The notes beneath the pieces are model-generated. The model was not told where the DNA came from. It did no database searches and was given only the letters and a program-made list of their open reading frames with translations. A program made the translations under genes and the position numbers. From a virus: a stretch of 25,386 bases of DNA. Shown here piece after piece: positions 1 through 15,030 of this stretch. Within the stretch, counting starts at the first letter, position 1. The number at the start of each line of letters is the position of its first letter. The stretch is taken from positions 1 to 25,386 of IMG/VR virus record IMGVR_UViG_3300012936_004344; one strand, given 5' to 3'.

Positions 1-1353
1 ATTTCACCTGAATCTAAGATTGGTAAAATTCAAGATTGGGATGCTAATAAATTTATTAAAGGTGAAGTTGATACATACTATATTGGTGAAGATACTATAT
101 CACGAGATAACCTTAAAAAATATTTAGAACAATCAAAGTTTTCAGTAGCATCTAATGGTGTTTTATATAGAACAGATTCGGTAGGATGTATTCCTGGTAT
201 TCTTGATTTGTGGTTTCAACAAAGGGTTGAATACAAAAATGAGATGAAGAAGTATGGAAAGGCTGGTAATAAAGAAAAATATGCATTCTTTCACAAAAGA
301 CAGTTAGTACAAAAGATTCTACTTAACTCATTATATGGTGTTTTAGGATTACCTGCGTTTAGATTCTATGATGTTGATAATGCTACTGCAGTTACAACCA
401 CAGGTCAAACTGTGATTAAATCAACTGCTGATATGGGTAATATCAAATACAACAAAGAACTAAATACACCTGATGCTGATTCCAATATATACATTGATAC
501 TGATTCTGTTTTCTTTTCAGCAGTTCCTTTGATGGATAAAAGAATACCTAATTGGAAAGAACAAGACCAAGATACAATTGCTGGTTATGTAAATGAGATT
601 GCAGAGGAGATGCAAGATTATCTCAATGATTTTTACGATATACTTTCAACTAAAATTTTAAATGTTGATAAAGATAAACACAGATTAGAGATTAAGAAGG
701 AGTATGTTGCTAAGGCTGGATTGTGGATTGCAAAGAAAAGATATGCTCAATGGATTATTTCTGATAATGGAGTACCAGTAGATAAGTTAGATGTAAAAGG
801 ATTGGATGTAAAGAGAAGTTCATTCCCAAAGGCATTTCAAGAATGTATGGGTACAGTTTTGATTGATATTCTAAAAGGTAAATCAGAAGATGAGATTTCA
901 GATTATGTAGTTGATTTCAAAAAGAAGATGATAAATAGACCTACATCAGAGATTGCAAAGAACTCTGCTGTAAAGAATCTTTCAAAATATATTCCAAAAG
1001 GTAAAAGACAATTGTTTCAATTTGGTAAAGGAACACCTGCTCATGTAAAGGCAGCGATATCTTACAACGATTGTTTGAAACATTTTAATGCACCATTCAA
1101 ATACGAACCTATGAAAAATGGTGATAAAGTAAAATGGGTTTATCTAAAAGATAATCCATTAGGTTTAGATGGGTTGGCCTTCACTGGTTATTCAGACCCA
1201 CCAGAGATAGAACAATTTTTAGCTACTTACATAGACCACAATAAAATCTTTGAAAGAGAGTTAAAAAATAAATTACAAGATTTCTTCGATGCTATTGGTT
1301 GGGGTGATGTTGTAAGTGAACAAAGAACAGCCGAAAAGTTCTTTACTTTCTAA
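1..1353 (+). CDS. 43: DNA polymerase, family B, T4 gp43-like (5' end missing)
   Basis: The 3' part of a replicative family B DNA polymerase; the reading frame is open from base 1, so the start lies upstream of the window and 450 codons are visible. Motif B (KILLNSLYG, bases 313-339) binds the incoming nucleotide and motif C (IDTDS, with DTDS at 496-507) carries the catalytic metal-binding aspartates. Between them the stretch RFYDVDNATAVTTTGQ resembles the equivalent part of T4 gp43. A later KGLDVKRSS element fits the thumb-side region of the same family. The N-terminal exonuclease half is outside the window. Sliding-clamp and clamp-loader genes downstream fit a T4-type replisome. An internal ATG at 208 is not the real start because the polymerase fold clearly continues upstream. 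The family assignment is firm; exonuclease activity cannot be judged here. Confidence 0.95.
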   Translation: MSPESKIGKIQDWDANKFIKGEVDTYYIGEDTISRDNLKKYLEQSKFSVASNGVLYRTDSVGCIPGILDLWFQQRVEYKNEMKKYGKAGNKEKYAFFHKRQLVQKILLNSLYGVLGLPAFRFYDVDNATAVTTTGQTVIKSTADMGNIKYNKELNTPDADSNIYIDTDSVFFSAVPLMDKRIPNWKEQDQDTIAGYVNEIAEEMQDYLNDFYDILSTKILNVDKDKHRLEIKKEYVAKAGLWIAKKRYAQWIISDNGVPVDKLDVKGLDVKRSSFPKAFQECMGTVLIDILKGKSEDEISDYVVDFKKKMINRPTSEIAKNSAVKNLSKYIPKGKRQLFQFGKGTPAHVKAAISYNDCLKHFNAPFKYEPMKNGDKVKWVYLKDNPLGLDGLAFTGYSDPPEIEQFLATYIDHNKIFERELKNKLQDFFDAIGWGDVVSEQRTAEKFFTF

Positions 1354-1398
1354 GAATTTTTTGCAGGCATACTTATATTAAAACAAATAAAATTAATT

Positions 1399-2754
1399 AT
1401 GAAATTTAGAGATTGGAACAAAACATATACAGCACCTACAAAAGATGGAAGTAACCCATGGGATTACTCAAAATCACCAATTTATGATGAGATTTTGAAT
1501 TGCTTTCATGAAACACAAAGACCAGAAGATGTTAAACCATACAAAACAGATGGTAACACAAGGTTAAGAGACCCATTTAGAAAAATTAACAAATATAAAA
1601 TACAACAATTCCTTGGTCATATGAAAAAAAATGAATATAAGGAAGTTGATTGGGTAGAAGATGATGAAGGTAAAATAAAAGCAATTATATTATTTTATGA
1701 TTTAAATAAAATGAGTACACAAAATAAAAATGTAAACTCATTTTGTAATGAAACATATGTTCTTCAAAAATCAAGAGGTGATAAGTACATAAAGGAAATA
1801 GCTTGTTATCCTGGTTATGAAGAGTGGTTACAAAAATTAGTGGAAAAACATATTGCAAAACCACAAACATCTGCTTTCTTTGAAGTAGAAGAACCAATCA
1901 CTTTAGTTGAAATAGATAATCAATTAAAAAGAAATAGAGATATTCTAACAAACTTAGGATTCACTTGTATTGATAACATTATAACTTCGTTTGCGGATGT
2001 ATATGGTATTTGGGTTAAGGGTGGTGATTATCAGCCGATAGAACGAGCACAACAACTATCTCTACAAAAATTAGATGTACCTACTCAAGATACATCAAAG
2101 ATAATGGAACAAATTCTTAAACTAAACATGGATGAGTTTGCTAACCATTATTCAAACTATAATAAAGGAAATAGTTGGAGAGGTATGGTTGTAAAAGGAT
2201 ATGGTGGTTTAGTAGATTTTATTATTAAACCAGCAGAGATGACAAACTCTTGGAAAAAAGAAAATAAAGAAAAGTTAGAATGGACTGTACAAGATACACC
2301 ACTAAGAAAAACTGTATCTGAAGTTGAACATTTTGTTAATATTTTAAAAGAAGAATTACCACACCTAAAAGATGAAGATAAACATATAGAAAGAATTAGA
2401 ATTCTAAGATTATCAAAAGGTGAGGGTGAATTAGAAAGACATACAGATAGACAAGATAAAGATGCTGGTATTGGTGATGGTCAATGGACAAGAATCCATT
2501 TCCCACTTCAAACTAATCCTGATGTAAAGTTTACACAATGGAATTATGATGGTTCAAAAACTACTTTAAGAATGGGATTGGGTGAATGTTGGTATTTGGA
2601 TATGAGAAAACCACATACAGCAATAAACTTTGGTGATGAAGATAGATATCATTTAATTATTGATATTCAATCAAACGCTGAAACAAGAAGATGGTTAGAA
2701 AAAGGAGCTGATAAATATCCTACTACACAAGAACCTGATGACTATACAGAATGA
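1399..2754 (+). CDS. 2OG-Fe(II) oxygenase, Asp/Asn hydroxylase-like, with possible GNAT-like N-terminal part
   Basis: A 451-residue protein whose last third looks like a 2-oxoglutarate/Fe(II)-dependent dioxygenase of the aspartyl/asparaginyl beta-hydroxylase type. The iron ligands would be H348 and D350 (ERHTD) and H406 (KPHTAINFG). R416 in DEDRYHLIID is the likely 2-oxoglutarate-binding arginine, and RIHFPLQT is the usual core strand. The family hydroxylates protein side chains or small molecules. The first 200 residues are separate; the stretch ending NLGFTCI...DVYGIWVKG has the look of the C-terminal half of a GNAT acetyltransferase fold, but this is weak. The gene follows the polymerase after a 45-base gap and overlaps the next start by ATGA. 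The substrate is unknown. Confidence is good for the oxygenase domain and low for the N-terminal part. Confidence 0.72.
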   Translation: MKFRDWNKTYTAPTKDGSNPWDYSKSPIYDEILNCFHETQRPEDVKPYKTDGNTRLRDPFRKINKYKIQQFLGHMKKNEYKEVDWVEDDEGKIKAIILFYDLNKMSTQNKNVNSFCNETYVLQKSRGDKYIKEIACYPGYEEWLQKLVEKHIAKPQTSAFFEVEEPITLVEIDNQLKRNRDILTNLGFTCIDNIITSFADVYGIWVKGGDYQPIERAQQLSLQKLDVPTQDTSKIMEQILKLNMDEFANHYSNYNKGNSWRGMVVKGYGGLVDFIIKPAEMTNSWKKENKEKLEWTVQDTPLRKTVSEVEHFVNILKEELPHLKDEDKHIERIRILRLSKGEGELERHTDRQDKDAGIGDGQWTRIHFPLQTNPDVKFTQWNYDGSKTTLRMGLGECWYLDMRKPHTAINFGDEDRYHLIIDIQSNAETRRWLEKGADKYPTTQEPDDYTE

Positions 2755-3218
2755 GAATATCAGAAGATAAATTACAATCAATGTTTCGTTTAGCTGGTAT
2801 TGAAAAAGAAAAGTTACACGAAGCTCTTATTAAGATGGGTAAGAAACATCTTAAAACAAAAGCGATGAAAGATAATTGGAGTGAGGATAATCCTACTAAA
2901 AATTATTGTTATGTAATCGCTGAGTTTGTTTATTACTATCTTTCACCAAAAGGTTCTAAACCTTTCAAGTTACCTGGTATACCTGGTGATGATGGTTTAC
3001 ATAGATTTATTATGTGGCCAGATAATCAAATAGTTGATTTGGCTATTGACCAGTTTCCAAACTATGAAGAAGTAAATTATTCAAATGCAAAGATATGTTA
3101 TTTTATGACAACTAAAAATAACAAAGGCCCATCAAAGAGAACAAGAATACTGGCAGAACATTTAGGTTATGAACTACCAGAACAAAGAGAAAAAGAAGTT
3201 AACACAAAATTTTGGTAA
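2751..3218 (+). CDS. Small protein with candidate Cys/His/Asp triad
   Basis: A 155-residue protein I cannot name. It has no signal peptide or membrane segment. The centre has C53 at the start of a helix-like stretch (YCYVIAEFVYYYL), H84 in a strand-like segment (LHRFIMWPDNQ) and D96 in IVDLAIDQF. This Cys, His, Asp order with a helix after the Cys resembles papain-like or NlpC/P60-like cysteine hydrolase folds, so a peptidase or amidase-like role is conceivable. This is inference from residue order only. The start codon overlaps the stop of the oxygenase gene (ATGA), and its stop TAA is followed directly by the next ATG, so the three genes are probably translated together. Confidence 0.6.
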   Translation: MRISEDKLQSMFRLAGIEKEKLHEALIKMGKKHLKTKAMKDNWSEDNPTKNYCYVIAEFVYYYLSPKGSKPFKLPGIPGDDGLHRFIMWPDNQIVDLAIDQFPNYEEVNYSNAKICYFMTTKNNKGPSKRTRILAEHLGYELPEQREKEVNTKFW

Positions 3219-4049
3219 ATGAGTATAAGTAAATTTTTAGAACCTACCTATGAAGATAACAATGGTAGATTTTGGACAGTAGATGAATTGTTGGAATTGG
3301 TTAAGGATTGGGAGGACCCAAATCCAGACCCAATCATTACAAAGTTTGATGATGTGTATGTAGTACAAGATGAACTTTTAGATTATGGTGCAAAGATAAG
3401 ATTTGTTGACAAGTTTATAAAAGATACACCACATAAAGAAATTGTATTTGGTTCTTCACCTGCTACAGGTTATGCTCAAATATCCTTACCAGCAGTTACA
3501 AACAGATATGGTAAAAAAACTGTATTGTTTATGGCTAAGAGAAATCCTGAAAACTATCATGATTATCAGAAAAGAGGAATGGCATTAGGTGCTGAGTATA
3601 AATGGGTAAACATGGGAATGTTATCAGTTACTCAATCAAGAGCAAGAAAATATGTTGAAGAAAATCCTGATGAAAGAGTTGTATTTCCAATAGGGTTAGA
3701 ACATCCAACTGTAATTGCTTCTATCATAAAAGTTGCAAGAAAACATATTGACCCAACAAAGATATCTGAAATTTGGAGTGTTGCTTCAAGTGGTACTTTG
3801 GCAAGAGGTTTAGCATTAGCCTTTCCTGATTTACCAATTAATATTGTATCAGTTGGTCATACAATGAGTGAACGAGAAATCGGTAGAGCAAAATATTACA
3901 GAAGTGAATATAAATTTGATAAACCTATTAAAGAATCTGAATTAAAAGAACTGCCATTTAAATCAGCAATCACATACGATGCAAAGGCATGGAGATTTGT
4001 AAAGGAGTTTGGTAAGAAAGATTGTTTATTTTGGAATGTTGGATATTAA
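3219..4049 (+). CDS. Fold-type II PLP-dependent enzyme-like protein
   Basis: A 276-residue protein resembling the tryptophan synthase beta/cysteine synthase/ACC deaminase superfamily. The early segment DELLDYGAKIRF offers K59 as the candidate Schiff-base lysine. GSSPATGYAQ could be the substrate-side loop, and SVASSGTLARGLA (around residue 190) resembles the glycine/serine-rich phosphate-binding loop normally written SGGT. The end, DAKAW...LFWNVGY, is also like this superfamily. At 276 residues it is somewhat shorter than typical 300-400 residue members. The reaction is unknown, and a non-catalytic or sugar/nucleotide-related role cannot be excluded. The ATG directly follows the previous TAA. 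The gene is the last of the polymerase-led run; a new promoter begins 17 bases after its stop. Confidence 0.55.
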   Translation: MSISKFLEPTYEDNNGRFWTVDELLELVKDWEDPNPDPIITKFDDVYVVQDELLDYGAKIRFVDKFIKDTPHKEIVFGSSPATGYAQISLPAVTNRYGKKTVLFMAKRNPENYHDYQKRGMALGAEYKWVNMGMLSVTQSRARKYVEENPDERVVFPIGLEHPTVIASIIKVARKHIDPTKISEIWSVASSGTLARGLALAFPDLPINIVSVGHTMSEREIGRAKYYRSEYKFDKPIKESELKELPFKSAITYDAKAWRFVKEFGKKDCLFWNVGY

Positions 4050-4065
4050 AAAAAATCAAAAAAGA

Positions 4066-4097
4066 CTTGGATATATGAAAATAATTTCGTATATTTG
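4066..4097 (+). promoter_or_regulatory. Bacteroidetes-type promoter P1
   Basis: The -33-like CTTGGATAT starts at 4066 and the -7 element TATATTTG lies at 4090-4097, with a 24-base start-to-start distance identical to the other copies in this window. TTTCG immediately precedes the -7 box. It drives the HD-domain gene through a leader of about 29 bases. The first base of the -33 box is C instead of T. Confidence 0.8.
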
Positions 4098-4126
4098 TAC
4101 TACAAATAATAAAACTTAAAAGAATT

Positions 4127-4786
4127 ATGAATAGATACGATGCAAAACAGTTAGAAGAGAACTACAATAAGTTTATTGAAGCTCTTAAGAAATCGTTTGA
4201 TGGAGAACGATTAGATAAATTACTTCATATGTACTCAATGGAAGAGTTAGGACCAAACCTAATGTTATCCCCAGCGAGTGGAAATAAGAATTACCACAAT
4301 GCTTACGAAGGTGGTTATATTGACCATGTTATAAATGTAAGTAGGAATGCTATCAGAATGATGAGAATGTACGAACAGGCTGGTGGTACGATTGATTTTA
4401 CACAAGAAGAACTTCTGTTTACGGCCTTTCATCACGATTTGGGGAAACTCGGAACAAAAGGTGAACTTCACTATATTCAGAACGATTCTCAATGGCACAT
4501 AGATAAGTTAGGACAAGTTTACAAATCAAATCCTAACATCGTATATTTAACACACACAGATAGAACTATGTTTCTTTTAAATCAATATGGTATTAAGTTC
4601 AATGAGAAAGAATACCTTGGTATGAAATTAACAGATGGTTTATTTGATGAAGATAATAAAAAATACTTAATCACTTTTGATAAAGATAAGATTGTAGGTA
4701 AAACTACGAATATGGGATATATCATGCATTGGGCCGACCATATGTCAACCATTATTGAGAGAGATGAGGTATTCGGTAGAAAATGA
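4127..4786 (+). CDS. HD-domain phosphohydrolase
   Basis: A 219-residue metal-dependent hydrolase of the HD superfamily. Metal ligands are visible in order: H67 in GGYIDHV, the signature H101-H102-D103 in FHHDLGKLG, and D204 in HWADHM; H57 is also conserved-looking. Such proteins remove phosphate from nucleotides or cyclic nucleotides, and related ones act as nucleotidases, (p)ppGpp hydrolases or phosphodiesterases; the substrate cannot be told here. It is a single gene with its own promoter (P1). Its TGA stop lies inside the first of two perfect palindromes that precede the next gene. A role in recycling host nucleotides, or in removing a signalling nucleotide used in defence, is inference. 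Confidence 0.82.
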   Translation: MNRYDAKQLEENYNKFIEALKKSFDGERLDKLLHMYSMEELGPNLMLSPASGNKNYHNAYEGGYIDHVINVSRNAIRMMRMYEQAGGTIDFTQEELLFTAFHHDLGKLGTKGELHYIQNDSQWHIDKLGQVYKSNPNIVYLTHTDRTMFLLNQYGIKFNEKEYLGMKLTDGLFDEDNKKYLITFDKDKIVGKTTNMGYIMHWADHMSTIIERDEVFGRK

Positions 4787-4797
4787 CAATTTGTCAT
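4783..4797. promoter_or_regulatory. Perfect palindrome 1 (candidate operator)
   Basis: ATGACAA-T-TTGTCAT is a 15-base perfect dyad with a one-base centre. It overlaps the stop codon of the HD gene and lies upstream of the GHKL ATPase gene. No T-run follows, so it does not look like an intrinsic terminator; a dimeric repressor or activator site is more likely. Confidence 0.5.
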
Positions 4798-4800
4798 GTA

Positions 4801-4815
4801 GTACCATTTTGGTAC
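4801..4815. promoter_or_regulatory. Perfect palindrome 2 (candidate operator or short hairpin)
   Basis: GTACCA-TTT-TGGTAC is a second perfect 15-base dyad. Its centre is 18 bases downstream of the centre of palindrome 1, but the half-site sequence differs. It ends 40 bases before the ATG of the GHKL ATPase gene. A TTTG at 4808-4811 and a TAnnTTTT at 4836-4843 could be a weak promoter overlapping it, though the spacing (28) is off the 24 seen elsewhere. Confidence 0.45.
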
Positions 4816-4855
4816 AATTTAAGATATAAACTAATTAATTTTTAAAAATAATTTT

Positions 4856-6652
4856 ATGGCAGAAATACTTGCACCTCCGAAACCTACACAGGAGGAATTT
4901 AAACAAAGTGTAGAAAAGTTCTCAAATCCAAAAGCGGAACATGATTTTAGTGGAATGATTCATGGACTTGAAAAAAATGGTACATGGATATCATCTTTTA
5001 TAGATTTATTTCATAATCACTTTGCTGTTGACCCTGAGAATCCAAATCAACTTTCTCCACTAGGAGTAGATAATCTTCTAAAAATCCAATGGGATTTTAC
5101 GAGGTTAAAAAATGGTAAATATAGATTTGATAGTTATGAAGTAGGTGGAACAGGATATGGTTTTGTACCAACTACTAAAACTTTAACAAAACTGATGGGA
5201 AACTCATCGGTAACAGAAGGTAACTATACATTTTCTCAACACGGTCTTGGTGCTACAGCCACCTTTTGTTTTTTAACACATGGAACTTCTAAATGGTTCA
5301 TTATTGTAAAAACAAAAAATTGTGATAAGTGGTATGTTTATGAAAAGGATTTTTACAACGATAAGGATACCTACGATGGATATCACACGACACAAGAAAT
5401 TAAACAATTATTTCCTCATGTTAAGATAGAGGCACTACAAGAATCAGGTCTATATCAGAGTTATGAAATTTTAGACCCTACGAAGTTAAATCATATTAAC
5501 GATAATAGTTTTAAAGCAGCAGGAAGTGATTGGTTTGAAGTTTTAGAAGCTGAAATTGGTACAAGATTTCGTAGATTAATAAGGAACAACAAACTTGAAG
5601 TAAGATTCACAATGACTGATGAAACAGGTAATACTGTTCATAATGATTTAGTACCAGCTTTTGTAGATGATATTAAGGATACACCAACAACTATAAAGTA
5701 TATGCCTGGTGGATTTAAAAAACTTGACCTTATCTATAACTTTAGAAATCCAACTGGTTCTGATAAACACAAGACTTTAAAAAGTGATAATAAGAATAAA
5801 GTTGTTGGTTATGGTACAGCTACTAAAGATTTAAAATATGATGACCATACTATATTAGAAATAGTTGATGACCATACTGGTGCTACCTTATCTTGGGTTG
5901 AAATACCAAATAGATTTTTAAGACAAGGAAACTTTTCGGTAGTATTAAGATTACCAAGAGGAATGTGGAAATCTACCACAGATAAGGCACATATCGAATT
6001 AACCCATCCTACTGATAAATCAAAAAATCTCACAAAAACAAAACTTGTTCAGAGTGTGATGAATAAACTTAAAACTTTATTTAAAGATGAATCATTAATT
6101 CGTTGTGAAGATGATTTGAGAGACCAATTAATTGATGTGGCGAGTGGATTATACTTCCCTTCACAATGGGGAATGAGAGCTATTACAGAATATAGAACCT
6201 TTTTTGATTTATTAGGAGTACCCAACTTTAGTGGTAAAGGAAGTACACCAAAACAAGTTTATAAAGAAGAATTCAATTGGTGTAAAAAACATTTAAAAGG
6301 AAGGGATGTTGGTGTTAAATTAGGTGATTCTATTTTAGATATATATGTTAGTGAACCAAATGCATGTATCGAACTTATAGATGGTGATTTAGATAAAAAT
6401 CATTATCACAAAAATGATACATATATTCTTGAATCAGATGAAAGTAAGAAAGGAAGATTCTCAAAAATCACCACTCTTTTTGTAAATAATAAACAAGATT
6501 ATCTTCAATCAGTTGAAGATGGTGCTAATTCTCAATGGGGACCTAAGTACAAGAAAAGAAGGAACAATGTTGATAGAGCTATTGGTAATCTTTCATACTT
6601 TGGACTTGATGTTCTTTTAGTTGATAATTTAAGAACAACTATTGCAAAATAA
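4856..6652 (+). CDS. GHKL (Hsp90/MORC-like) ATPase with unassigned C-terminal domain
   Basis: A 598-residue protein whose first 300 residues fit a GHKL-type ATP-binding fold. N54 in DLFHNHF matches the N-box asparagine that holds Mg-ATP. VGGTGYGF (96-103) matches the DxGxG loop, with G98 where Asp is usual. HGLGATATF (129-137) matches the glycine-rich lid. After this, EIGTRFRRLIRNNKLEVRF (from residue 233) resembles the segment after the GHKL domain in MORC-like ATPases. The C-terminal 170 residues, including LDIYVSEPNACIELIDGD, form another domain; a nuclease-like fold is possible but no clear catalytic set is seen. MORC-type proteins close as dimers on DNA. The gene is monocistronic, behind two palindromes and ahead of promoter P2. 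It could be a DNA-handling or anti-defence factor. The replaced Asp means ATP binding is not certain. Confidence 0.6.
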   Translation: MAEILAPPKPTQEEFKQSVEKFSNPKAEHDFSGMIHGLEKNGTWISSFIDLFHNHFAVDPENPNQLSPLGVDNLLKIQWDFTRLKNGKYRFDSYEVGGTGYGFVPTTKTLTKLMGNSSVTEGNYTFSQHGLGATATFCFLTHGTSKWFIIVKTKNCDKWYVYEKDFYNDKDTYDGYHTTQEIKQLFPHVKIEALQESGLYQSYEILDPTKLNHINDNSFKAAGSDWFEVLEAEIGTRFRRLIRNNKLEVRFTMTDETGNTVHNDLVPAFVDDIKDTPTTIKYMPGGFKKLDLIYNFRNPTGSDKHKTLKSDNKNKVVGYGTATKDLKYDDHTILEIVDDHTGATLSWVEIPNRFLRQGNFSVVLRLPRGMWKSTTDKAHIELTHPTDKSKNLTKTKLVQSVMNKLKTLFKDESLIRCEDDLRDQLIDVASGLYFPSQWGMRAITEYRTFFDLLGVPNFSGKGSTPKQVYKEEFNWCKKHLKGRDVGVKLGDSILDIYVSEPNACIELIDGDLDKNHYHKNDTYILESDESKKGRFSKITTLFVNNKQDYLQSVEDGANSQWGPKYKKRRNNVDRAIGNLSYFGLDVLLVDNLRTTIAK

Positions 6653-6664
6653 AATATGAAAACA

Positions 6665-6696
6665 TTTGGATATCTCAAATATTTTTCGTATATTTG
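6665..6696 (+). promoter_or_regulatory. Bacteroidetes-type promoter P2
   Basis: TTTGGATAT starts at 6665 and TATATTTG lies at 6689-6696, start-to-start 24 bases, with TTTTTCG just before the -7 box. It precedes the sliding clamp gene by 30 bases and probably transcribes the compact clamp-methyltransferase-clamp loader-IMPDH run. Confidence 0.85.
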
Positions 6697-6726
6697 TACA
6701 AATATAAATTATAATTTAATAAAAAC

Positions 6727-9293: not shown

Positions 9294-10238
9294 ATGGCAT
9301 TCTTCGAAGATACAACCAATAAAGAAGTTAACAATTCGTTATGGGTTGAAAAGTATAGACCTCGTAAACTGACAGAATATGTTGGTAACGAACACCTTAA
9401 ACAAAAGGTAAGTGATTATCTTCAAAGTGGAGATGTACCTCACCTTTTATTTTTTGGTAAGGCAGGTACAGGTAAAACAACCTTAGCAAAGTTAATTGTT
9501 AACTCAATCAATTGTGATTACATTATAATAAACGCATCCGATGAGAACAATGTAGATACTGTTAGAAACAAAGTAAAAGGTTTTGCTTCCACTATTGGTT
9601 TTAAGGATATGAAAGTAATCATCTTGGATGAGTTTGATTACATGACACCAAATGCACAAGCAATCCTTAGAAACTTGATGGAAACATTCTCAAAACATTG
9701 TAGATTTATTCTAACTTGTAACTATGTAGAAAAAGTTATTGACCCGATTCAATCTCGTTGTCAAACTTTTCAGATAGTACCACCATCTAAAAAAGAGGTG
9801 GCAGTACAAATCTCACAGATTTTGGGTAAAGAAGGAGTTGGATTCCAACCAACAGACCTTGTACCTATCATTGATAGTTCATATCCTGATATTAGAAAGA
9901 TTATTAATACTTGTCAACTAAATTCATCAAAAGGTAAATTAAAACTCGATACAACCTCTGTAATCGATTCAGATATCAAATCTAAAGTAGTTGAGATTCT
10001 TAAATCAAGTGATGATAAAAGAAACAAATGGAAGAACATTAGACAAGCAGTTGCTGATGCGAGAATACAAGATTTTACTGAATTATATTCTTTCCTTTAT
10101 GAAAAGGTAGATGAATATGGTGGTGGAAATACATCTAATATTATTCTTATACTTTCAGAATCACAACACAAAGATGCTTTGGTAGTTGATAAAGAAATTA
10201 CATTTATGAGTTGTATAATACAAATAGTAGCATTATGA
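9294..10238 (+). CDS. 44: Clamp loader ATPase subunit, T4 gp44-like (AAA+)
   Basis: A 314-residue AAA+ ATPase of the RFC/gp44 type that opens the sliding clamp and loads it onto primed DNA. The N-terminal LWVEKYRPRKL is the RFC-box start. Walker A is GKAGTGKT (residues 55-62), Walker B is ILDEFD with D112-E113, and the arginine-finger SRC motif is at 154-156. Length matches T4 gp44 (319). Its partner, a gp62-like subunit, is about 5.3 kb downstream instead of adjacent as in T4. The stop overlaps the ATG of a 38-codon ORF (ATGA). Confidence 0.95.
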   Translation: MAFFEDTTNKEVNNSLWVEKYRPRKLTEYVGNEHLKQKVSDYLQSGDVPHLLFFGKAGTGKTTLAKLIVNSINCDYIIINASDENNVDTVRNKVKGFASTIGFKDMKVIILDEFDYMTPNAQAILRNLMETFSKHCRFILTCNYVEKVIDPIQSRCQTFQIVPPSKKEVAVQISQILGKEGVGFQPTDLVPIIDSSYPDIRKIINTCQLNSSKGKLKLDTTSVIDSDIKSKVVEILKSSDDKRNKWKNIRQAVADARIQDFTELYSFLYEKVDEYGGGNTSNIILILSESQHKDALVVDKEITFMSCIIQIVAL

Positions 10239-10351
10239 ATGAAGTAACATACAATATTGATTTTTCAATTTATAAAAATCATCCATATTATCAAAATTTT
10301 TCTGTTACAACAGATAAAATAACATTTTACACAAATAAAGAAAAAAGTTAA
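10235..10351 (+). CDS. 38-codon micro-ORF between clamp loader and IMPDH/GMPR gene
   Basis: A short ORF starting MNEVTYNIDFSIYKNHPYYQ and ending TNKEKS. It is coupled on both sides: its ATG overlaps the clamp-loader stop (ATGA) and its TAA overlaps the next ATG (TAATG). That double overlap, typical of this genome, is the main argument that it is translated. It is aromatic- and lysine-rich with no recognisable motif. It may be a small protein in its own right or serve mainly to carry ribosomes to the next gene. Confidence 0.5.
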   Translation: MNEVTYNIDFSIYKNHPYYQNFSVTTDKITFYTNKEKS

Positions 10352-11403
10352 TGAACTATTCCTTAACATACGATGATATTCAATTAGTACCTAAGTACTC
10401 GAATATTCCTACTCGTACACAAATCAAATTACATACTCTCGTATCTCGTAGATACGGTCTTTTAAATCCGATTGTAGCCTCTCCAATGGATACAGTTTGT
10501 GGTTTAGAAATGGCATATAAAATGTTTAAACTCGGTGGAGTTGGTTGTATCCATCGTTTTAATTCAATAGAAGAACAATCAAATATAGTAAAAGAATTAT
10601 ATCACAGAATCTTTTATATTTCATCTGATGTACCATTATTAGAATGGGCAAAAATAGGATGTGGAATTCCACCAATTATGGCTGCAATTGGTGTAAGTGA
10701 AAGTGATAAAGAAAGAGCTAAATCATTAGTAGAAGCAGGATGTAATGTTTTACTAATTGATGTTGCTCATGGACACCATCAAAATGTTTTAAACATGATT
10801 AAGTGGTGTAAAAAGAATCTTGATGATAAAGTGGATATAATCGCTGGTAACATTGCAACCGCACATGCCGCACAAGAATTAGAAACTTGTGGAGCAGATG
10901 GGTTGTGTGTTGGTATTGGTGGTGGTTCACTTTGTACAACAAGAGTTAAGACAGGATTCGGAGTACCGAATGTAAGTTGTTTAGAAGATATTACATCTGT
11001 TGCGTTAACTCCAGTTATGGCTGATGGAGGTATTCGTTCAAGTGGTGATATTTCAAAGGCTCTGGCAATCGGAGCGAGTTCTGTTATGTTGGGTTCATTA
11101 ATCGCTGGTACTGATGAAGCACCAGGTCAGATTGTTGAAACACCCAATGGTCTTTATAAGAGATATAGAGGTTCGGCCTCATTAGAAACGAAAGTAACAC
11201 ATGGTCAACAGACCAGAAATGTAGAAGGTGAATCTACGACCATTCCCTACAAGGGCGGAGTAAAGTTCATAGTGAATGGTTTAATTGATGGAGTAAAATC
11301 AGCACTATCTTATGGTGGTGCTCAAGATTTGGAACACTTTAATCCATCCTATGTAATTGTTACTAATTCTGGTATTAATGAAGCAAAACCACATCTTTTA
11401 TAA
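10351..11403 (+). CDS. IMP dehydrogenase / GMP reductase family enzyme
   Basis: A 350-residue TIM-barrel enzyme of the GuaB/GuaC family. The N-terminus LTYDDIQLVP, the phosphate loop ADGGIRSSGDISKALAIGA and the catalytic-cysteine loop GIGGGSLCTTR (C195) are all present. IMPDH makes XMP from IMP; GMP reductase makes IMP from GMP. Length and the lack of CBS domains favour GMP reductase (about 347 residues). DVAHGHHQNVLNMIKW is closer to IMPDH, but the IMPDH flap with Arg-Tyr is not seen after YRGSASLE, where only a short HGQQTRNVEGE segment occurs. The reaction is therefore left open. It is the last gene of the P2 transcript and would adjust the guanine nucleotide pool for phage replication. 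Confidence 0.85.
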   Translation: MNYSLTYDDIQLVPKYSNIPTRTQIKLHTLVSRRYGLLNPIVASPMDTVCGLEMAYKMFKLGGVGCIHRFNSIEEQSNIVKELYHRIFYISSDVPLLEWAKIGCGIPPIMAAIGVSESDKERAKSLVEAGCNVLLIDVAHGHHQNVLNMIKWCKKNLDDKVDIIAGNIATAHAAQELETCGADGLCVGIGGGSLCTTRVKTGFGVPNVSCLEDITSVALTPVMADGGIRSSGDISKALAIGASSVMLGSLIAGTDEAPGQIVETPNGLYKRYRGSASLETKVTHGQQTRNVEGESTTIPYKGGVKFIVNGLIDGVKSALSYGGAQDLEHFNPSYVIVTNSGINEAKPHLL

Positions 11404-11462: not shown

Positions 11463-14168
11463 ATGAGAAAACTATTATTAGTTGGATTGATGCTCTTAAC
11501 GAGTATCACAGCCTTTGCACAAATTAGTGGGAAGGTCATCGATGCTGAGACTGGTGATGTTTTACCAGGTGCAACTATCGTTATTGAGGGAACTCAAGAT
11601 GGTACTGTATCAGGTTTTGACGGAACTTTCAGTATTGATGTATCGGAAGGAGAAGCTTTGATTATCTCTTACATTGGGTACGAAACTGTGGTTGATTCTG
11701 CAGAAGAAGGTATGGTTGTTGCGTTACAAGCAGACCTAAATGTACTTGGTGAAGTAGTGGTAACTTCTGGTGTGATTGATGTTGCTAAGGTGAGAGAAAC
11801 ACCAGTTGCAGTTTCAACCATTTCACCATCAGAAATTGCACTGAAAGTAGGTAACCAAGAATTTCCTGAAATTATGAACAAAACACCAGGTGTTTACGCT
11901 ACCAAACAAGGTGGTGGATATGGTGATTCGAGAATCTCTCTTAGAGGATTTGACCAAAGAAACACATCATTCCTTATCAATGGGCAACCAGTTAACGATA
12001 TGGAAAATGGATGGGTTTATTGGTCTAACTGGCAAGGTTTAACAGATGTTGCTAGTGGTATCCAATTACAAAGAGGATTAGGTGCATCGAGATTGGCGGT
12101 ACCATCAGTAGGTGGAACAGTTTCAATCTTTACAAAAGCAGCTGAGGCTCAAGAAGGTGGTTCAGTACAACAAGTTATTGGTAACGATGGCTATACTAAA
12201 ACTACTACTTCTTACTCAACTGGTCTAAGTGAAAGTGGGTGGGCTTCATCTTTCCTTCTTTCAAGATGGGCAGGTGATGGATATATCTATAATACAAGTG
12301 GTGAGGGTTATACTTACTTCTTTGCATTAGGATATGCACCCGAAGATTCAAAACACTCAGTTAACTTTTCTTTCTTAGGTGCTGGTCAATGGCACCACCA
12401 AAGAGATGTTTGGGTTTCTATTAGAGACTACCAAAACTTTGGTGAAGAAGGAATTGATAGAAGATGGAACACTAATGGTGGTGTTTTAAATGGAGAAGAA
12501 TATTCTTTAAGAAGAAACTTCTACAACAAACCATTAGCAACATTGAATTGGGATTTTGATATTTCTGATAAACTTAAACTTGCTACATCATTATATGGTT
12601 CGGCAGGTAGAGGTGGAGGAACAGGTCCAAGAGGTAGAAGTTACTACAACTCGGAAACTGATGTTTTACCATTCAGAAAAGACCTTACTCAACACTACTT
12701 AGAAAATGGTAGAGGTTCAAGAACACCAGAAGGATTTATTGACTTCGATGCTATTGTGGCATATAACCAAGCAAACACAGACCCTTATAGTGGTGATTTA
12801 CCATTTACAGGTCAGTTAATTGGTTCTAATGGATTCAATGAAGATGGTGTTAACAGAAGTGCTTTGATTAGAAGAGCATCTATGAACTCACATGACTGGG
12901 TTGGAGCAATCTCTAACTTAGAATATGAGAGTGGAAATTGGAAAACATCAATTGGTGTTGATTTGAGAAACTACACAGGATACCATTATAGAGTTTTGAA
13001 TGACCTTCTTGGTTTAGATGGTTATTACTCAACTGGTAATGATAATTCTGCGGGACAAATTATCAACACTTTAGTTGATGCTAATCCTTTCCAAAACACA
13101 GGTCTAAATGGCCCTAAAATTGCTTATTACAATGTTGGTAAAGTTGGATGGCAAGGTTTAAATGGTTTAGTTGAATATAACAACTCTACTATATCTGCTG
13201 TATTACAAGCAGGTTTATCAAACCAATCCTTCCAAAGAATTGATTACTTTGGACAACCTGATAATCCAGAATCAGATACAGAAAATGTTGGTGGTGGATA
13301 TCTTAAAGGTGGTGCAAACTACAACATTGATGATAAACAAAATGTATTCTTTAATGCTGGATTCATTTCAAGACAGCCAAACTTTGATGGGGTATTCCCT
13401 AACTATGCAAACACAGTTAATCCTGATTTACAAAATGAAGAGATTAAATCTGTTGAATTAGGATATGGATTTATCAGTAACAGCTTCAAAGCAAATGTAA
13501 ACTTATACTCAACAGTATGGGGTAATAGATTTGTTTCAAGAAGTTTATCTAACCAACAAGGTGTTGATGGATTCGCTCAATTTAAAGATATTGATGTAGT
13601 ACACAATGGGATTGAAGTTGAAACACAATGGAATCCAAATTCTAACTTAAGATTAAAAGGTATGGTTTCAATCGGTGATTGGAGATATACTAAAGATTTT
13701 GAGGCAGCTTTATTTGATGATAACAACGAACAAATCGGAACAGGTACATTGTACTTAAAAGATGCGAAAGTTGGTGATGCCGCTCAATTTGTTTCTTATT
13801 TAGAAGCTGATTACAAAGTAGGTAATAAACTAAATGTAGATTTAGGATATAGATTTGTTGATAATCTTTATGCAGATTATTCAATTACTGATTCAGAATT
13901 TACATCACCTGATAATGCAGGTGCATTAAAATTACCATCTTATGGATTAGTTGATTTAGGTTCAACCTTTAGATTCAACTTATTCGGAAATGATGCTTCA
14001 TTCAGAGTAAATATCAACAACTTGTTTGATACTACTTACATTGCAGAATCTAATTCAAACATCCATGCTGGAGATGCTTCAGAAACATGGAATGGTATTG
14101 ATACAAGAAACTCAGTATGGTTCGGATTCGGCCGTACTTGGAATGCTTCTTTAAAATATAGATTCTAA
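11463..14168 (+). CDS. TonB-dependent outer-membrane receptor with carboxypeptidase-like N-terminal domain
   Basis: A 901-residue, apparently complete TonB-dependent receptor of the Bacteroidetes type. Residues 1-19 are a Sec signal peptide (two basic residues, a leucine-rich core, AFA before Q20). Residues 21-95 (ISGKVIDAETGDVLPGATI onward) form the CarboxypepD_reg-like beta-sandwich common in Bacteroidetes receptors. LGEVVVTSGVID then leads into the plug, with ISLRGFDQRN and GGTVSIFT as typical plug elements. The rest is a 22-strand-type barrel ending in the outer-membrane phenylalanine signature (LKYRF, F901). Such receptors import siderophores, vitamins, glycans or peptides, and also serve phages as entry points. 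The frame is open throughout. Codons use AAC, TAC and TTC more than neighbouring genes, suggesting high expression or separate origin. It lies between phage replication genes, with its own leader and a strong terminator. Confidence 0.95.
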   Translation: MRKLLLVGLMLLTSITAFAQISGKVIDAETGDVLPGATIVIEGTQDGTVSGFDGTFSIDVSEGEALIISYIGYETVVDSAEEGMVVALQADLNVLGEVVVTSGVIDVAKVRETPVAVSTISPSEIALKVGNQEFPEIMNKTPGVYATKQGGGYGDSRISLRGFDQRNTSFLINGQPVNDMENGWVYWSNWQGLTDVASGIQLQRGLGASRLAVPSVGGTVSIFTKAAEAQEGGSVQQVIGNDGYTKTTTSYSTGLSESGWASSFLLSRWAGDGYIYNTSGEGYTYFFALGYAPEDSKHSVNFSFLGAGQWHHQRDVWVSIRDYQNFGEEGIDRRWNTNGGVLNGEEYSLRRNFYNKPLATLNWDFDISDKLKLATSLYGSAGRGGGTGPRGRSYYNSETDVLPFRKDLTQHYLENGRGSRTPEGFIDFDAIVAYNQANTDPYSGDLPFTGQLIGSNGFNEDGVNRSALIRRASMNSHDWVGAISNLEYESGNWKTSIGVDLRNYTGYHYRVLNDLLGLDGYYSTGNDNSAGQIINTLVDANPFQNTGLNGPKIAYYNVGKVGWQGLNGLVEYNNSTISAVLQAGLSNQSFQRIDYFGQPDNPESDTENVGGGYLKGGANYNIDDKQNVFFNAGFISRQPNFDGVFPNYANTVNPDLQNEEIKSVELGYGFISNSFKANVNLYSTVWGNRFVSRSLSNQQGVDGFAQFKDIDVVHNGIEVETQWNPNSNLRLKGMVSIGDWRYTKDFEAALFDDNNEQIGTGTLYLKDAKVGDAAQFVSYLEADYKVGNKLNVDLGYRFVDNLYADYSITDSEFTSPDNAGALKLPSYGLVDLGSTFRFNLFGNDASFRVNINNLFDTTYIAESNSNIHAGDASETWNGIDTRNSVWFGFGRTWNASLKYRF

Positions 14169-14225: not shown

Positions 14226-14969
14226 ATGTTACATAGAAAAATATCAGATTGGTTAAAAGATTATTTAGAAAACGCAAACTTAGATTCATTTGTAGTTGGT
14301 GTTAGTGGTGGAATAGATTCAGCCGTAACTTCAACATTATGTGTAATGACAGGTAAACCTACTTATCTTTTATCAATGCCTATTCACCAAAACGAAAAAG
14401 AATTACAAAGAGCTGAAAACCATATGAGGTGGTTAGGAGAACATTATGAAAATGTTCAAAACTTAGAATTTGATTTAACTCAAACTTATGAAACATTTAA
14501 GTTGATGTGGTTAAATGAAGATGATAATTTAGCGTTAGCAAATACTCGTTCAAGATTAAGAATGACAACTTTATATCATGTAGCAACAATGAACAATGGA
14601 TTAGTTGTTGGTACTGGTAATAAAGTAGAAGATTATGGAATAGGCTTTTATACCAAGTATGGTGATGGTGGTGTAGATATTGCACCAATAGCAGATTTAA
14701 TGAAATCAGAAGTTATAGAACTTGGTAAACAATTAAACATAAATCAAGAAATTATCGATGCTCCTCCTACTGATGGTTTATGGGATGATGGTAGAACAGA
14801 TGAAAATCAAATTGGAGCAACATATGATGAGTTAGAATGGGCAATGAATTTCAAAGGTGATTATGGTGATTTAAATGAAAAAGATAAAGAGATATTAGAT
14901 ATATATCATAAATTCAATACACAAAATAAACACAAAATGATTCCCATACCTACATTCAAAAAAAATTAA
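14226..14969 (+). CDS. nadE: NAD+ synthetase, ammonia-dependent NadE
   Basis: A 247-residue NAD+ synthetase, which amidates nicotinate adenine dinucleotide to NAD+ using ATP and ammonia. The PP-loop SGGIDS is at residues 27-32. GTGNKVEDYGIGFYTKYGDG is the family's substrate-binding region, and DIAPIADLMKSEV with APPTDGLW completes the signature. It has no glutaminase domain, and its length is near the short bacterial form (about 270). No promoter is visible between it and the receptor terminator, so it may rely on read-through. Maintaining NAD could support phage metabolism or counter NAD-depleting host defences; this is inference. Confidence 0.92.
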   Translation: MLHRKISDWLKDYLENANLDSFVVGVSGGIDSAVTSTLCVMTGKPTYLLSMPIHQNEKELQRAENHMRWLGEHYENVQNLEFDLTQTYETFKLMWLNEDDNLALANTRSRLRMTTLYHVATMNNGLVVGTGNKVEDYGIGFYTKYGDGGVDIAPIADLMKSEVIELGKQLNINQEIIDAPPTDGLWDDGRTDENQIGATYDELEWAMNFKGDYGDLNEKDKEILDIYHKFNTQNKHKMIPIPTFKKN

Positions 14970-14976
14970 CATTTTG

Positions 14977-15008
14977 TTTGGATATTTATAAATAATTTCG
15001 TATATTTG
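14977..15008 (+). promoter_or_regulatory. Bacteroidetes-type promoter P3
   Basis: TTTGGATAT starts at 14977 and TATATTTG lies at 15001-15008, start-to-start 24, with ATTTCG before the -7 box. It begins 7 bases after the nadE stop and serves the three overlapping genes up to the gp62-like subunit. Confidence 0.85.
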
Positions 15009-15030
15009 TAAAACAAATAAAATATAAGAT

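What the first reader, a model, noticed from the sequence alone, without database searches (positions are those of the whole stretch)
4856..6652. Phage GHKL/MORC-like ATPase with an unassigned C-terminal domain
N-box-, DxGxG- and lid-like motifs are recognisable, but the usual Asp of the second motif is Gly (G98). The protein is single-gene, has an elaborate upstream region, and carries a second domain that may be nuclease-like. MORC-type ATPases are known from eukaryotic silencing and bacterial conflict systems; a lytic-phage version could compact DNA or block defence.
Basis: partly seen in the sequence, partly recalled or inferred. Interest (0 to 1): 0.68.

Follow-up and report, generated by a model that had tools for sequence, protein, structure and literature searches.

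The report
Swappable phage gene with degenerate GHKL-like domain
In a group of marine T4-like phages one gene slot holds one of at least three nearly unrelated, same-sized proteins that are swapped between viruses as a unit; all three look like a worn-down ATP-clamp domain joined to a nuclease-like tail, which suggests a weapon or shield in phage-phage or phage-host conflict.

Summary
The 598-aa ORF at 4856-6652 is real and under purifying selection. No Pfam, NCBIfam, PADLOC or PDB family matches it, and PHROGs gives only one chance-level hit. A low-confidence AlphaFold model of the N-domain returns only GHKL structures in its first 17 PDB hits, so a diverged Bergerat-type domain is likely but not proven. 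It is not the rIIA orthologue: related phages carry a separate, genuine rIIA. The larger result is the locus. In an otherwise 86%-identical relative, only the ORF body is replaced by a same-length, nearly unrelated body behind an identical leader and first ten codons. A third body sits one gene upstream in other relatives, and some phages have an empty site. Between two other contigs the ORF has no synonymous differences, while the adjoining gene has dS 0.62. All three bodies carry the lid motif and a D...E nuclease-like hairpin near the C-terminus. Best reading: an exchangeable conflict cassette encoding a degenerate GHKL-like/PD-(D/E)XK-like protein; ATPase and nuclease activity are untested and doubtful for this allele.

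The parts
4856..6652 (+). ORF 'W', 598 aa, the finding
   Evidence: dN/dS 0.24
4856..4885 (+). first ten codons (MAEILAPPKP), identical in allele B of another phage although the body differs
4928..5755 (+). N-terminal GHKL-like domain plus start of a transducer/S5-like region (residues 25-300); strongest purifying selection, dN/dS 0.07
5003..5017 (+). N-box-like motif D50-L-F-H-N54
   Evidence: sequence; invariant in relatives; DVFMN in allele B
5147..5164 (+). G-box-like motif G98-T-G-Y-G-F103; the canonical Asp position is Gly98 (Asn in alleles B and C)
5234..5254 (+). lid-like motif S127-Q-H-G-L-G-A133
6338..6379 (+). D495-x10-E506-L-I508 hairpin, PD-(D/E)XK-like but without the Lys; lies in the fastest evolving region (dN/dS 0.61)
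4785..4795 (.). imperfect palindrome GACAATTTGTC in the leader, overlapping the HD stop codon
4801..4815 (.). inverted repeat GTACCA-TTT-TGGTAC in the leader; among 285 fetched loci only in window-type and allele-B phages; lies inside a sigma70-like match TTGTCA-16-TACAAT (4791-4818)
4127..4786 (+). HD-domain protein, directly upstream; anchor of the variable slot
1399..4049 (+). rest of the block: Asp/Asn beta-hydroxylase-like (1399-2754), YunG-like (2751-3218), phrog_7093 'threonine dehydratase' (3219-4049)
6661..6714 (+). Bacteroidota-type promoter repeat (TTTCGTATATTTGTAC) downstream of the ORF; a near-identical copy follows allele B

Best explanation
The ORF is one allele of an exchangeable cassette gene in T4-like phages of (probably) marine Bacteroidota. 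The protein has an N-terminal, strongly diverged GHKL (Bergerat-type) domain of the MORC/SMCHD1/Topo VI-B kind, followed by a transducer-like region and a C-terminal restriction-endonuclease-like, PD-(D/E)XK-type domain. The cassette (leader with inverted repeats, ORF) is swapped by recombination at the conserved leader and the downstream promoter repeat. Proposed mechanism: the GHKL-like module dimerises and clamps or senses a DNA or protein target through the transducer region, and the C-terminal domain cuts or binds that target, so each allele acts against a different competitor phage or host defence. SHOWN: ORF, motifs, allele replacement with same length and position, recent horizontal spread, conserved N-domain and fast C-terminus. 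INFERRED: the fold, the nuclease-like domain, the conflict role. UNCERTAIN for this allele: ATP binding (Asp to Gly98) and catalysis (ExK Lys missing); it may work as a DNA-binding, catalytically dead form.
For: (1) Replacement: L188 is 86.4% identical to the window over 1-4884 and again from 6646, but bases 4885-6645 are replaced by a 1768-bp body coding 597 aa. A third body of 595 aa lies between the PLP-like and HD genes in L183 and relatives; L186 and L187 have nothing between HD and the next gene, groEL. (2) Horizontal spread: between L002 and L003 the ORF has 0 synonymous changes in 369 sites, HD dS 0.62; window vs L003 ORF dS 0.16, HD 0.84, TDH 0.82. (3) Fold: PDB hits 1-17 of the N-domain model are all GHKL from at least six families, first SMCHD1 (E 4e-3); VIA-align best Z 5.7, mostly GHKL. 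(4) All three bodies have the lid motif (background 7/574) in GHKL order; W and B N-domains are related beyond the shared peptide at about p 0.005 (5/1000 shuffles, 2/401 decoys), C-terminal halves are not. (5) D...E hairpin about 95-106 residues from the end in W, B, C; ExK intact in B; decoy rate 12/586. (6) N-domain dN/dS 0.07, C-terminal 0.61, Fisher p 0.002. (7) Precedents: VcSduA has GHKL plus clamp-like middle plus PD-(D/E)xK and defends against phages (PMC12137116); phage rIIA has GHKL plus variable C-terminus, listed as counter-defence (PMC7824862).
Against: No HMM library or PDB sequence search matches W, B or C convincingly. The N-domain model is low confidence (pLDDT 44, pTM 0.41) and no Foldseek hit reaches E 1e-3; BFVD gave no GHKL hits and the full-length model (pLDDT 34) gave none in PDB. 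The adenine Asp is missing in all three alleles. W-B similarity without the shared peptide is weak (BLAST E 0.08); W-C is marginal and B-C absent, so common ancestry of all three bodies is not shown. The Lys of ExK is missing in W and C. hhalign to rIIA is not significant. The conflict role is inferred from mobility and precedent alone.
Confidence: 0.5

Rival explanations
1. The slot is a landing site for unrelated orphan genes; the GHKL-like motifs in W are chance and W, B and C share only length, leader and first codons because recombination happens there.
For: No significant HMM match for any allele; W-C and B-C similarity at or near background; BLAST without the shared peptide E 0.08; low-confidence model.
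Against: All three bodies independently carry the lid motif in GHKL order (background about 1.2%) and the D...E hairpin near the end (about 2%); 17 of 17 top PDB hits are GHKL; near-equal lengths 598/597/595.
Confidence: 0.27
2. It is the rIIA protein of this phage lineage (GHKL plus variable C-terminus), acting like T4 rIIA in lysis control or against Rex-type exclusion.
For: rIIA is the known phage GHKL protein with a variable C-terminus (PMC7824862); the best hhalign stretch of L003 falls on the rIIA SREALSLDDRT region and ranks third among about 245 non-rIIA ORFs.
Against: Three related 134-170 kb phages that carry the same AspHyd-YunG-TDH block have a separate genuine rIIA (761-aa frame, E about 1e-87); no rIIB next door; hhalign probability about 2% or less.
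Confidence: 0.05
3. A MORC-like DNA compaction or silencing ATPase of the phage itself.
For: SMCHD1 and Topo VI-B are the nearest folds of a weak model.
Against: Rare accessory gene: no match in 33 related records that share the clamp loader; Asp of the nucleotide site lost; alleles swapped for nearly unrelated ones, which is unlike a housekeeping chromatin function.
Confidence: 0.08
4. A special case of the best explanation: a phage-borne interference nuclease that works like Shedu type I-D (GHKL sensor controlling a PD-(D/E)xK nuclease) against competing phages.
For: Same proposed domain order as VcSduA (PMC12137116); allele B keeps D...ExK; exchange of whole alleles.
Against: No DUF4263/SduA profile match in Pfam or PADLOC; W and C lack the catalytic Lys; no canonical GHKL Asp.
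Confidence: 0.2

Closest known systems
VcSduA (Shedu type I-D), Vibrio cholerae anti-phage protein
   Same: N-terminal GHKL, clamp-like middle, C-terminal PD-(D/E)xK-type nuclease (PMC12137116); similar proposed domain order
   Different: VcSduA has all GHKL motifs and the DUF4263 nuclease motif and is bacterial; here the Asp is lost, Lys of ExK is lost in W, no profile match, and the gene is on a T4-like phage
T4 rIIA
   Same: Phage GHKL N-domain with highly variable C-terminus; T4-like phages
   Different: Canonical motifs, linked to rIIB; related phages carry it separately
SMCHD1 / MORC / paraMORC GHKL proteins
   Same: Best structural hit of the weak N-domain model is SMCHD1
   Different: No sequence match to HATPase_c_3; canonical Asp missing
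Topoisomerase VI subunit B and GyrB/ParE ATPase domains
   Same: Structural hits of the weak model; similar glycine-rich lid
   Different: No Toprim or topoisomerase partner next to the gene; Asp missing

Membership tests
GHKL (Bergerat) superfamily | N-box acidic residue and Asn (E/DxxxN) | tested here: met
   D50-L-F-H-N54, invariant in relatives
GHKL (Bergerat) superfamily | DxGxG motif with adenine-binding Asp | tested here: not met
   G98-T-G-Y-G; Gly in W, Asn in B and C
GHKL (Bergerat) superfamily | Glycine-rich ATP lid (GxxGxG) | tested here: inconclusive
   S-Q-H-G-L-G: last two Gly present, first Gly replaced
GHKL (Bergerat) superfamily | Bergerat alpha/beta sandwich | tested here: inconclusive
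   Model pLDDT 44; first 17 PDB hits all GHKL but E at best 4e-3; full-length model gave none
GHKL (Bergerat) superfamily | ATP binding or hydrolysis | not testable with these tools
   needs purified protein
MORC / HATPase_c_3 (PF13589) | Profile match to HATPase_c_3 | tested here: not met
   no match at E up to 10
MORC / HATPase_c_3 (PF13589) | S5-fold transducer domain after GHKL | tested here: inconclusive
   helix then two strands predicted at about residues 226-265, low confidence
T4 rIIA | Sequence relation to rIIA profile | tested here: inconclusive
   hhalign probability W 0.6%, L003 2.2%, within the range of decoys
T4 rIIA | Is the lineage's orthologue, next to rIIB | tested here: not met
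   related phages hold a separate rIIA; neighbours are HD and gp45
PD-(D/E)XK nucleases | D...(D/E)xK catalytic triad | tested here: not met
   W: D495...E506-L-I508, Lys absent; C: E-F-F; B: E-W-K intact
PD-(D/E)XK nucleases | Restriction-endonuclease-like fold | tested here: inconclusive
   only element order of a very poor model
Shedu type I-D (SduA, DUF4263) | DUF4263/SduA profile match | tested here: not met
   no Pfam or PADLOC match to it for W, B or C

The most novel reading that the evidence does not exclude
A phage allele-exchange system: one genomic slot with a fixed regulatory leader and start peptide into which same-sized, sequence-unrelated GHKL-like/nuclease-like effectors are swapped between phages, forming a pool of inter-phage weapons or anti-defence proteins that use a GHKL scaffold without the adenine-binding Asp, that is, without normal ATP control.
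Probability: 0.22. Interest if true: 0.8.

Novelty: new variant of a known kind. Interest (0 to 1): 0.55.

Why it matters
If right, it gives a testable case of a phage gene slot that works like an allele cassette for conflict proteins, with natural alternatives (W, B, C, empty) at the same place in closely related phages. It would also add a family in which the GHKL scaffold persists after loss of the residue that binds adenine, and a phage counterpart of the bacterial GHKL-nuclease defence proteins. Even without the function, the locus shows whole-gene replacement with conserved leader and start codons, recent enough to leave no synonymous change between two environmental phages.

Tried and rejected
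Pfam, PHROGs, NCBIfam, PADLOC and PDB sequence searches gave nothing usable. tblastn in phages and plasmids gave none except chance hits. A motif-pattern scan of IMG/VR found 79 stretches, of which only the known relatives encode the family. A leader-pattern scan found only the allele-B phages plus chance. Two scans of bacterial genomes found nothing, so no bacterial relative and no named host. Search of related phage records with the W profile: none. The full-length AlphaFold model was unusable. The BFVD fold search gave no signal; PADLOC HEC-03A with allele B (E 0.012, 33 residues) was judged too weak. rIIA orthology rejected. The leader RNA fold has only z -1.5; no Rfam match. One search scripted scrambled rows of the protein to force degenerate search patterns; they were never used and IUPAC patterns were used instead.

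Full report
Observation. The window is a whole IMG/VR record of 25,386 bases, a fragment of a T4-like phage: family B DNA polymerase, sliding clamp-like protein, clamp loader. Promoter-like repeats of the form TTTCGTATATTTGTAC at about 4060-4112, 6661-6714 and 14977-15027 and a TonB-receptor-like gene point to a Bacteroidota host; that is inference. The ORF at 4856-6652 is as stated. It matches no family in Pfam, NCBIfam or PADLOC; PHROGs returned one 25-residue hit at E 0.042, taken as chance. There are only two close relatives in IMG/VR, L002 and L003, at 92-93% identity. Against L003, dN/dS is 0.24 over the whole gene.

Motifs. D50-L-F-H-N54, G98-T-G-Y-G-F103 and S127-Q-H-G-L-G-A133 stand in the order of GHKL motifs and are invariant in the relatives. 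The strict GHKL pattern is not met. The relaxed pattern, with the Asp position free, is met by W (this ORF) and B (below), by rIIA proteins and by 2 of about 575 other phage ORFs; those two are a helicase-like ORF and a frame without an evident gene.

The locus. In most relatives found through the clamp loader, polymerase and clamp are adjacent or separated only by groEL-like or methylase genes. In the window the block AspHyd-YunG-PLP-like(TDH)-HD-ORF lies between them. In L003 the same block, at 89-93% identity, lies upstream of a polymerase only 55% identical to the window's, so the block itself has moved between phage lineages.

Allele replacement. Using the HD and PLP-like genes as anchors, the slot next to HD proved variable. 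L188 carries, behind a near-identical leader and identical first ten codons (MAEILAPPKP), a different 597-aa protein B; the DNA matches at 86.4% over window 1-4884 and again from 6646, but not between. L183, L184 and L187 carry a third protein C (595 aa in L183, partial in the others) upstream of HD; in L183 it lies between the PLP-like and HD genes with its own promoter repeat. L186 and L187 have nothing between HD and groEL, an empty site. L002 and L003 share the W body but have a different leader and a different first 25 or so residues.

Recent spread. Between L002 and L003 identity runs at about 76-92% across the block and jumps to 99-100% in the ORF. The ORF has 0 synonymous changes in 369 sites while HD has dS 0.62 (Fisher p about 1e-35). 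Window against L003 gives ORF dS 0.16, HD 0.84, TDH 0.82. Within the ORF, residues 27-300 have dN/dS 0.07 and residues 480-598 have 0.61 (counts differ, p 0.002).

Are the alleles related? Without the shared start peptide, W and B N-domains score above shuffles at 5/1000 and above other phage ORFs at 2/401; W-C gives 20/1000 and 6/401; B-C is background; C-terminal halves are background in all pairs. Pairwise BLAST is weak, E 0.08. All three have the lid motif (7 of 574 other ORFs do) and, 95-106 residues from the end, a D...E hairpin like that of PD-(D/E)XK nucleases: W LDIYVSEPNACIELI, B LDLAVIKEDWKIANEWK with a full ExK, C IDMMFKKEGEKPTMIIEFF (W fits only if Cys is allowed before the Glu, which the scripted pattern did not). 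These patterns were partly shaped after seeing the sequences, so the rates are a guide only.

Structure. A full-length model from three near-identical sequences is unusable (pLDDT 34; no GHKL in the fold search). A model of residues 25-280 from W, L003, L002 and B has pLDDT 44 and pTM 0.41. Its PDB hits 1-17 are all GHKL: SMCHD1 first (E 4e-3), then Topo VI-B, GyrB, ParE, sacsin SR1 and PMS1, with the first other protein at rank 18. VIA-align gives Z up to 5.7, mostly GHKL. These Z values are in the range that can mean only a common arrangement, and the viral library gave no GHKL hit. I read this as moderate support.

Known relatives in function. rIIA is the established phage GHKL protein with a variable C-terminus (PMC7824862). 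A profile of rIIA proteins does not match W significantly, and three 134-170 kb relatives with the same block have a genuine rIIA elsewhere, so W is not rIIA. VcSduA joins a GHKL domain, a clamp-like middle and a PD-(D/E)xK nuclease and protects bacteria against phages (PMC12137116); W, B and C resemble it in proposed layout but match no Shedu profile.

Conclusion. What is shown: a real, selected, accessory gene in an allele-exchange slot with recent horizontal spread. What is likely: a degenerate GHKL-type N-domain. What is plausible: a nuclease-like C-terminus and a role in phage-phage or phage-host conflict. What is doubtful for this allele: ATPase and nuclease activity. From general knowledge, the adenine-binding Asp is needed for ATP binding in Hsp90 and MutL, so its loss in all three alleles argues for a nucleotide-independent or altered use of the fold.

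Noticed in passing
window 11463-14168: 901-aa protein with CarboxypepD_reg, TonB plug and TonB-dependent receptor barrel domains, conserved at about 70-92% in many related phage contigs: a phage-encoded TonB-dependent outer-membrane receptor.
   Followed up: no
L188 about 9600-11229, L016 5723-7345, L045 3480-5105 and others: Related phages carry a groEL-like chaperonin between polymerase or HD and the clamp gene; the window phage lacks it there.
   Followed up: no
window 4060-4112, 6661-6714, 14977-15027: Dispersed near-identical promoter repeats (TTTCGTATATTTGTAC) that could serve as recombination sites for cassette exchange.
   Followed up: partly
L002 2306-2536, L003 786-1007, L078 1695-1946: Small ORFs ending ...KTWTHL/KTWIHL with an HTH-like segment (homing-endonuclease DNA-binding remnant?) at the edge of the mobile block.
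   Followed up: no
window 14226-14969 and 10351-11403: NAD synthetase and an IMP dehydrogenase/GMP reductase-like enzyme; NAD synthesis could counter NAD-depleting defence.
   Followed up: no
L190, L194, L205, L245 next to HD: Other phages have a class II glutamine amidotransferase/asparagine-synthetase-like protein in the slot beside HD.
   Followed up: no
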